Source of the DNA: Clavibacter phaseoli
Lineage (GTDB): Bacteria > Actinomycetota > Actinomycetes > Actinomycetales > Microbacteriaceae
Reading direction: 5' to 3'
Length of the DNA stretch: 64,000 nucleotides
Assembly (NCBI RefSeq): GCF_021922925.1
Contig: NZ_CP040786.1
Location: 620,001 to 684,000 of the forward strand
Under the pieces are notes generated by a model, which did not search any database, was not told the DNA's origin, and was given only the letters and a program-made list of their open reading frames with translations. The position numbers and the translations under genes were made by a program. Below, piece by piece: positions 44,767 to 45,632 of this stretch. Positions within the stretch are counted from its first letter, which is position 1. Each line of letters opens with the position of its first letter.

Positions 44767-45038
44767 CGGCTCCGGGGCTGTCACAGCCCCGGTTCGAAAG
44801 AGGATTGATCTCCCACCCGCGCTTGACCGCCTCCATAGGTTACCGGGTCGATTTCGCTCCCCCGTCCGAAGGGCCCCTCACCGGGACCGCACGACGGGAG
44901 CCCCGCACACGCGGGGAAAGGGCGTGTTGCCGAGTACGACGGATCCGTCGCACCCTGGTGAAGAACCCTCCTCGTCTCGAATCCGAGCGGCTCCCCGAGA
45001 GCCGCCGGGCCACCCGAAGACACGAATAGGAGCAGTCC
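44767..45038 (+). promoter_or_regulatory. Long structured leader of infC
   Basis: About 270 nt of untranslated leader. It contains three clean hairpins: CCGGGGCTG/CAGCCCCGG at 44772-44792 next to the predicted 5' end, CCCCGC/GCGGGG at 44901-44916, and GCGGCTC/GAGCCGC at 44987-45005, 21 nt before the ribosome site. Ribosomal protein L20 or IF3 often controls this operon in other bacteria; a regulatory role here is inferred. Confidence 0.55.
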
Positions 45039-45632
45039 ATCAGCGATCCCCGTACCAACGATCGAATCCGAGTTCCCGAGGTTCGCCTCGTTGGCCCAGC
45101 AGGCGAGCAGGTCGGCGTCGTATCCATCGACGTCGCACTCCGGCTCGCGCAGGAAGCCGACCTCGACCTCGTCGAGGTCGCGCCCAATTCCAAGCCCCCC
45201 GTGGCGAAGATCATGGACTACGGCAAGTTCAAGTACGAGGCCGCGCAGAAGGCCAAGGAAGCGCGTCGCAACCAGGCGAACACCATCCTCAAGGAGGTGC
45301 GCTTCCGCCTGAAGATCGACAAGCACGACTACGAGACCAAGCGCAAGCGCGCCGAGGGCTTCCTGCAGGACGGCGACAAGGTCAAGGCCATGATCCTGTT
45401 CCGCGGGCGCGAGCAGTCGCGTCCGGACCAGGGCGTGCGACTGCTCAAGATGTTCGCGGAGGACGTCGCCGAGTTCGGCAGCGTCGAGTCCACCCCCACG
45501 ATCGACGGCCGCAACATGGTCATGGTCATCGGACCGCACAAGAACAAGTCCGAGGCCAAGGCCGAGGCCAACGCGAAGCGCGACGCCACCAAGGCGAGCG
45601 CTCGAGAAGCGAGAGAAGAGAACAATGCCTAA
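45039..45632 (+). CDS. infC: Translation initiation factor IF-3, started at ATC
   Basis: 197 residues beginning ISDPRTNDRIRVPEVRLVGP, the normal IF3 N-terminus. TAGGAG (45027-45032) lies 6 nt before ATC 45039. A TAG stop is in frame at 45027-45029, and no ATG, GTG or TTG occurs until GTG 45195, deep in the conserved N-domain. ATC is therefore the most likely start. The linker and C-domain show MDYGKFKYEAAQKAKEARRN and FRLKIDKHDYETKR. IF3 rejects non-canonical start codons, so a rare start allows autoregulation, as with AUU in E. coli. It overlaps rpmI by 8 nt. Confidence 0.93.
   Translation: MSDPRTNDRIRVPEVRLVGPAGEQVGVVSIDVALRLAQEADLDLVEVAPNSKPPVAKIMDYGKFKYEAAQKAKEARRNQANTILKEVRFRLKIDKHDYETKRKRAEGFLQDGDKVKAMILFRGREQSRPDQGVRLLKMFAEDVAEFGSVESTPTIDGRNMVMVIGPHKNKSEAKAEANAKRDATKASAREAREENNA

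What the first reader, a model, noticed from the sequence alone, without database searches (positions are those of the whole stretch)
45021..45200. infC is initiated at ATC, with an in-frame stop sealing off any upstream start
The conserved IF3 N-terminus (ISDPRTNDRIR...) runs in frame from 45039, behind TAGGAG. A TAG at 45027-45029 blocks extension and no ATG/GTG/TTG appears before 45195, so an ATG/GTG-only gene finder will lose about 52 residues. A rare start codon is known for E. coli infC (AUU), where IF3 discriminates against it to regulate itself; an ATC solution in an actinobacterium suggests the same feedback reached by another codon.
Basis: partly seen in the sequence, partly recalled or inferred. 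Interest (0 to 1): 0.72.

Follow-up and report, generated by a model that had tools for sequence, protein, structure and literature searches.

The report
infC translation starts at ATC
The gene for translation initiation factor IF3 in this Clavibacter-like bacterium begins with the rare start codon ATC, which is normal for its relatives and already described in Streptomyces; comparing relatives turned up stranger IF3 start codons and a conserved RNA element ahead of the gene that the RNA library we searched does not contain.

Summary
IF3 (197 aa) starts at ATC 45039-45041 behind AGGAG. An in-frame TAG lies at 45027-45029. It is ordinary: all 117 Microbacteriaceae infC loci I examined start at ATC, ATT or, in one, ATA. 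A 2017 paper already states ATC for Streptomyces infC. IF3 autoregulation is the best explanation, but here it is inferred.

Two things beyond the finding are less ordinary. First, across Actinomycetota the codon drifts but seldom ends in G: 112 of 128 curated loci are non-canonical. Two unnamed orders have nearly fixed GTC (19 of 23) and GTA (28 of 29) starts, which I did not see described for infC. Second, about 190 nt upstream (44795-44850) lies a conserved structured RNA: one match in this genome, in 112 of 117 family loci and in 50 of 55 loci of an overlapping Actinomycetes set, with no Rfam 15 match. I suggest an L20-type leader; L20 binding is untested, and one switching mechanism that I tried got no support.

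The parts
45039..45632 (+). infC, translation initiation factor IF3, 197 aa, start codon ATC, stop TAA
   Evidence: start codon ATC/ATT/ATA in 117 of 117 family loci examined (one by eye)
45039..45041 (+). ATC start codon
45028..45032 (+). Shine-Dalgarno AGGAG, six bases before the ATC
   Evidence: similar Shine-Dalgarno and spacing in the family loci listed, L279 excepted
45027..45029 (+). in-frame TAG; incidental, not conserved in the family
45201..45203 (+). GTG, the first canonical in-frame codon; a gene finder limited to ATG/GTG/TTG would start here and lose 54 residues
44795..44850 (+). core of a conserved structured leader RNA: AAG-N-GGA..TCC, CACCCG..CGGGT with an inner hairpin; no match in Rfam 15
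   Evidence: no Rfam match
44770..44792 (+). hairpin (CTCCGGGGCTGTCACAGCCCCGG) just before the core; variable in relatives
44752..44760 (+). TGCTATGCT, likely extended -10 promoter element; TGnTA seen at a similar place in many relatives; not found by the sigma-70 consensus scan
   Evidence: by eye; scan negative
45625..45819 (+). rpmI (L35), ATG start, overlaps the end of infC
45866..46258 (+). rplT (L20), ATG start

Best explanation
infC is translated from the AUC at 45039. AUC mismatches the initiator tRNA anticodon at the third base, so IF3, which rejects such mismatches on the 30S subunit, lowers its own synthesis when it is plentiful and lets it rise when it is scarce. Shown here: the start position, its ribosome-binding site, and long conservation of a non-G third base while the codon itself drifts. 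Inferred: IF3-dependent repression, from E. coli and from the statement about Streptomyces in PMC5472188.
For: Family sample: 100 ATC, 16 ATT by rule and 1 ATA by eye, of 117 loci. Class sample 29 ATC, 1 ATT of 30; order sample 25 ATC, 3 ATT, 1 ATA of 29 (the samples share some genomes). Independent of the rule: in 46 of 117 family loci no ATG/GTG/TTG exists between the upstream in-frame stop and the conserved N-terminus, and in 39 of 82 order, class and phylum loci. Neighbour control in the same loci: every rpmI and rplT start found is ATG or GTG, e.g. family rpmI 95 ATG, 2 GTG of 97 found in 117 loci; rplT 28 ATG of 28 found. E. coli K-12 infC is ATT at its annotated start. On an IF3 tree of 128 phylum loci, the 5 unclear ones not counted, the codon changes at least 25 times, but canonical and non-canonical swap only twice. 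In the order of G126 the start is GTC 19, GTA 3, ATG 1 of 23, never GTG, although GTG is 155 of 416 Val codons in the IF3 body; in the order of G130 it is GTA 28, ATA 1 of 29, although GTA is 40 of 398 Val codons.
Against: No measurement of IF3-dependent repression was made here, and none for this genus was found. Exceptions exist: 4 of 128 phylum loci start at TTG, ATG or GTG, 7 more look canonical with a longer N-terminus, 5 are unclear, and one of 23 loci in the G126 order has ATG, so the feedback can be lost or replaced. A weak start could be kept only to hold IF3 low. My start rule accepts only ATG, GTG, TTG and NTH (N not C) codons, so it cannot report others.
Confidence: 0.82

Rival explanations
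1. The rare codon is kept only as a weak start that holds IF3 at a low constant level; there is no feedback through IF3.
For: Non-canonical starts of three other genes cut reporter expression to about 10% in S. aureus in poor medium (PMC13009471, passages), which needs no feedback.
Against: A low level could be had by a weak Shine-Dalgarno or by TTG, yet the third base mostly stays non-G through at least 25 codon changes, and the factor that judges the start codon is the gene's own product.
Confidence: 0.14
2. The main control of the operon is the upstream leader RNA (44795-44850), perhaps bound by L20 made from the third gene, and the start codon is secondary.
For: Element upstream of infC in 112 of 117 family loci and 50 of 55 Actinomycetes loci at E 0.01 or better, one match in the whole own genome; an L20 leader sits upstream of infC in B. 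subtilis (PMC10931766, passages).
Against: Not exclusive of start-codon control; no match to an Rfam L20 leader; of 27 deeper phylum loci without the element at E 0.01 25 still have a non-canonical start.
Confidence: 0.2
3. Translation really starts at GTG 45201 and the conserved 54 residues are not made.
For: GTG is the first canonical in-frame codon.
Against: It would remove most of the IF3 N-terminal domain, which is conserved as protein up to near the ATC, and a Shine-Dalgarno precedes the ATC position in the relatives.
Confidence: 0.01
4. A sequencing error made ATC out of ATG or GTG.
For: None found.
Against: Identical sequence over the start in three other assemblies and ATC/ATT/ATA in 117 of 117 family loci examined (one by eye).
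Confidence: 0.003

Closest known systems
E. coli infC with AUU start and IF3 autoregulation
   Same: IF3 gene followed by rpmI and rplT; third base of the start codon mismatches the initiator anticodon; Shine-Dalgarno in place
   Different: ATC, not ATT; feedback shown in E. coli (as cited in PMC5472188), not tested here
Streptomyces infC with ATC start (PMC5472188, passages read)
   Same: Same codon in the same phylum
   Different: No difference seen; the window is a further member
Streptomyces sigR GTC start repressed by IF3 (PMC5472188, passages)
   Same: GTC start with an extended Shine-Dalgarno, like the infC genes in the order of G126
   Different: There it is infC itself, and GTC is nearly fixed over the order
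S. aureus infC AUA start (PMC13009471, passages)
   Same: Non-canonical infC start; autoregulation called likely by the authors
   Different: Other phylum and codon
L20 leader of Firmicutes upstream of infC (PMC10931766, PMC7247131, passages)
   Same: Conserved RNA ahead of infC-rpmI-rplT; an AA pair of bases and consecutive G-C pairs are conserved
   Different: No match to an Rfam model; L20 binding unknown

Membership tests
infC with autoregulatory non-canonical start | gene encodes IF3 | tested here: met
   TIGR00168 203 bits over cut-off 60; single IF3_N hit in the genome
infC with autoregulatory non-canonical start | start codon other than ATG/GTG/TTG with a Shine-Dalgarno in place | tested here: met
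   ATC with AGGAG six bases upstream; ATC/ATT/ATA in 117 of 117 family loci examined (one by eye)
infC with autoregulatory non-canonical start | no canonical alternative start | tested here: met
   TAG at 45027 and no in-frame ATG/GTG/TTG before GTG 45201
infC with autoregulatory non-canonical start | translation repressed by IF3, relieved by changing the codon to ATG | not testable with these tools
   needs a reporter experiment
L20 ribosomal-protein leader | lies in the leader of an operon that encodes L20 | tested here: met
   44795-44850 upstream of infC, rpmI, rplT
L20 ribosomal-protein leader | match to a known Rfam L20 leader model | tested here: not met
   no match at gathering; none among the 5 matches up to E 10
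L20 ribosomal-protein leader | AA pair of bases plus two consecutive G-C pairs that dock (PMC7247131, passages) | tested here: inconclusive
   AAG invariant in the 64 rows of A3 and two C-G pairs in all 64 rows of A3 and 55 of A5, but any GC-rich RNA would have such pairs and docking was not tested
L20 ribosomal-protein leader | binds L20 | not testable with these tools
   needs a binding assay

The most novel reading that the evidence does not exclude
In Actinomycetota the infC operon is under two stacked RNA-level controls. One is a start codon constrained to a non-G third base, so strongly that whole orders have nearly fixed GUC or GUA as the IF3 start. The other is an undescribed leader RNA, shared by Actinomycetes and some deeper families, that senses L20 or the initiation machinery near the 5' end of the transcript.
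Probability: 0.4. Interest if true: 0.68.

Novelty: new member of a known kind. Interest (0 to 1): 0.42.

Why it matters
For the window itself: correct annotation of an essential gene, and one more case of a known feedback. Beyond it: order-wide GTC and GTA infC starts, if confirmed, would show that what is conserved is the third-base mismatch that IF3 inspects and not a particular codon. That makes IF3 start-codon proofreading testable with natural variants. The leader element, if it binds L20 or another factor, would fill a gap in how actinobacteria control the infC-rpmI-rplT operon.

Tried and rejected
Downstream GTG start and sequencing error: rejected. The ORF 44805-45029 that ends at the in-frame TAG: rejected as a conserved upstream ORF, because Clavibacter lycopersici has a 1-base insertion and a 3-base deletion inside it. 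A hidden start site by local folding: z -1.77, weak. Switch by pairing of the leader CUCC strand with the infC Shine-Dalgarno: the lowest-energy fold of the window leader has it (44802-44807 and 44810-44813 with 45029-45038), but over 116 family and 49 other leaders own pairs are no stronger than pairs swapped between genomes (60 and 27 of 100 swaps at least as strong); not supported. Sigma-70 consensus promoter or terminator in 44600-45100: none. SigR-type promoter pattern: in 4 of 195 Microbacteriaceae leaders (named and unnamed), not in the window. Sequence-only alignment of the element (A3): the two outer helices hardly vary, so they give little covariation (43 of 500 shuffles reach the score, and two slid controls, -3 and -1, have a higher score, though only 35.6% and 60.6% of their cells pair). 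The support comes from the model-fitted alignment A5 (0 of 500, which leans to its structure) and from an alignment-free test of the inner hairpin with plain letter shuffles (19 of 34 distinct segments of other Actinomycetes and 11 of 95 of Microbacteriaceae fall in the best 5% of their own shuffles). TTT/TTC as start in three loci (L347, L367, L372) rests on the Shine-Dalgarno alone. Outgroup phyla could not be sampled.

Full report
What is there. The window (bases 620001-684000 of contig 1 of a 3.2 Mb genome) carries infC-rpmI-rplT on the plus strand. The nearest named relative found is Clavibacter lycopersici, IF3 100% identical over 197 residues (records very near the window's own genome may be left out there). 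IF3 reads in frame from ATC 45039 behind AGGAG with six bases between; TAG 45027-45029 closes the frame upstream; the first canonical in-frame codon is GTG 45201.

Is it more than chance. In 80 named relatives, the best 80 of 581, the codon is ATC in 75 and ATT in 5, but that search used the peptide ISDPRTND as one of its words and so favours Ile there. A less biased sample: 120 genomes drawn evenly from the family, the window's own included, 118 with an IF3_N match. I used 117 loci (30 given, 86 fetched, and the window's own); the 118th, G094, is a fragment at a contig end and was dropped. By a fixed rule (a Shine-Dalgarno match of at least 4 bases, spacing 3-10 in the rule's count, codon ATG/GTG/TTG or NTH with N not C, first within 17 codons of the conserved Asn, then within 35) 100 are ATC, 16 ATT and one has no call; that one (L279) reads ATA by eye. 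None is ATG, GTG or TTG. The rule gives 29 ATC and 1 ATT of 30 for the class sample, and 25 ATC, 3 ATT, 1 ATA of 29 for the order sample; in the ATA locus, L168, an ATC with a weaker Shine-Dalgarno lies at the usual place. These samples share a few genomes with each other and with the family. Independent of the rule, 46 of 117 family loci have no ATG, GTG or TTG at all between the upstream in-frame stop and the conserved N-terminus, and 15 of 26, 8 of 27 and 16 of 29 loci of the order, class and first phylum sets; the anchor was a fallback position in 7 of these 199 loci. rpmI and rplT in the same loci start with ATG or GTG wherever they were found, e.g. rpmI in 97 of 117 and rplT in 28 of 117 family loci (the fetched stretches often end before rplT). 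E. coli K-12 infC has the expected ATT at its annotated start.

What the wider survey shows. From 129 genomes over the phylum (128 with a match) the rule alone gives 114 non-canonical, 9 canonical and 5 without a call. I then set 24 of the 128 by eye where two codons competed or relatives settled the position; the curated count is ATC 44, ATA 37, GTA 13, GTC 9, ATT 6, TTT 2, TTC 1 (112 non-canonical), 4 clearly canonical, 7 canonical-looking with a longer N-terminus, 5 unclear. On a FastTree IF3 tree the codon changes at least 25 times but canonical and non-canonical change places only twice, unclear rows not counted; many branches of that tree are weak. Over all 326 distinct genomes the rule gives 307 non-canonical, 10 canonical, 9 without a call.

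GTC and GTA. In the order of G126 (24 of 27 genomes match; one locus with a run of N was dropped) the start position holds GTC in 19, GTA in 3, ATG in 1 of 23. In 21 of 23 an in-frame stop lies within four codons upstream, typically AGG TGA TGC GGG GTC. GTG, 155 of 416 Val codons in the IF3 body, is not used there. The position, seven codons before the conserved Asn, equals that of ATC in most of the class sample outside the window's order. In the order of G130 (30 of 31 genomes match; one truncated locus dropped) it is GTA in 28 and ATA in 1 of 29, while GTA is 40 of 398 Val codons in the body. My paper searches showed no GTC or GTA start for infC; one search found 7 papers with the words GTC start codon, of which I read passages of PMC5472188 (sigR) only. 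The library holds open-licence PMC papers only.

How it works. IF3 rejects initiation complexes with such start codons. PMC5472188 (passages) states that infC is ATT in E. coli and ATC in Streptomyces and that IF3 thus autoregulates its own translation. PMC9845219's reference list names the E. coli AUU-to-AUG work (Butler, Springer and Grunberg-Manago 1987) and a 2020 preprint on genes preferring non-AUG starts in bacteria (arXiv 2008.10758); I read neither, and the preprint may already hold part of this survey. The step from codon to feedback is inferred for this organism.

The leader. Upstream of infC lies an element with core 44795-44850 after a likely extended -10 (44752-44760, by eye). 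A covariance model from 29 cores (26 Microbacteriaceae, 3 other Actinomycetes) finds exactly one match in the whole genome, this one. At E 0.01 or better (rough E-values, per call) it finds the element in 112 of 117 family loci (L001; 93 of 97; 18 of 19), in 80 of 80 named loci, in 50 of 55 Actinomycetes loci (L001 again among them) and in 0 of 27 deeper phylum loci. In some searches it is found at the right place in six further deep loci (L343, L352, L354, L369, L393, L394), in Tsukamurella (L281) and in four more loci of the class (L349, L353, L375, L380); one match (L286) is not upstream of infC. In a genome-wide search of 98 class genomes under stricter filters 51 have a match, each exactly one; in the 22 of these whose infC position I hold it lies just upstream on the same strand (infC positions). 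The training rows match by construction. Pairing: 96.7% of cells standard, 8 of 14 pairs with changes on both sides, 0 of 500 shuffles as high, slid controls lower, on an alignment fitted to the model that holds all 55 matches, weak ones included. On the plain MAFFT alignment the outer helices barely vary and give little evidence. The inner hairpin is supported in an alignment-free test, clearly outside the family (19 of 34) and weakly within it (11 of 95). Rfam 15 has no match. Known L20 leaders are given for Gammaproteobacteria and Firmicutes with a Deltaproteobacteria candidate (PMC7247131, passages); my searches for an actinobacterial one listed nothing whose title or abstract was on point. 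I think an L20-type leader most likely, but that is a guess from position and conserved AA and G-C pairs. Pairing of the leader with the ribosome-binding site was tested and is not supported.

Verdict. The finding is real and of a known kind.

Noticed in passing
window 44795-44850; R1 matches upstream of infC, e.g. L110:1259-1314, L164:1282-1334: Conserved structured RNA in the infC leader, one match per matching genome, without a match in Rfam 15; candidate L20-type leader.
   Followed up: partly
L114, L116, L283-L303 (order of G126): infC starts at GTC (19), GTA (3) or ATG (1) of 23 loci; in 21 an in-frame stop lies within four codons upstream.
   Followed up: yes
L133, L140, L305-L316, L318-L332 (order of G130): infC starts at GTA in 28 of 29 loci and ATA in one.
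   Followed up: yes
L347, L367, L372 (one genus, g216): Nine-base Shine-Dalgarno matches followed by TTC or TTT where the infC start should be; possible TTH starts.
   Followed up: no
L132, L386, L405, L406, L350, L360, L377: infC with a longer N-terminus and GTG/TTG near its start, little or no Shine-Dalgarno; perhaps leaderless mRNAs.
   Followed up: no
L402, L404, L408, L409: A clade of deep Actinomycetota whose infC starts at ATG, TTG or GTG: canonical starts.
   Followed up: partly
L281:1455-2093: Tsukamurella infC is annotated from a GTG 16 codons upstream of the conserved ISTETR start.
   Followed up: yes
L036, L069: Contigs titled Stenotrophomonas maltophilia and Acidobacteria carry Microbacteriaceae-like infC loci; likely contamination or misnamed bins.
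   Followed up: no
L281, L282: infC on records listed as plasmids (Tsukamurella, with rpmI and rplT; Azospirillum, without them, annotated with an ATA start).
   Followed up: no
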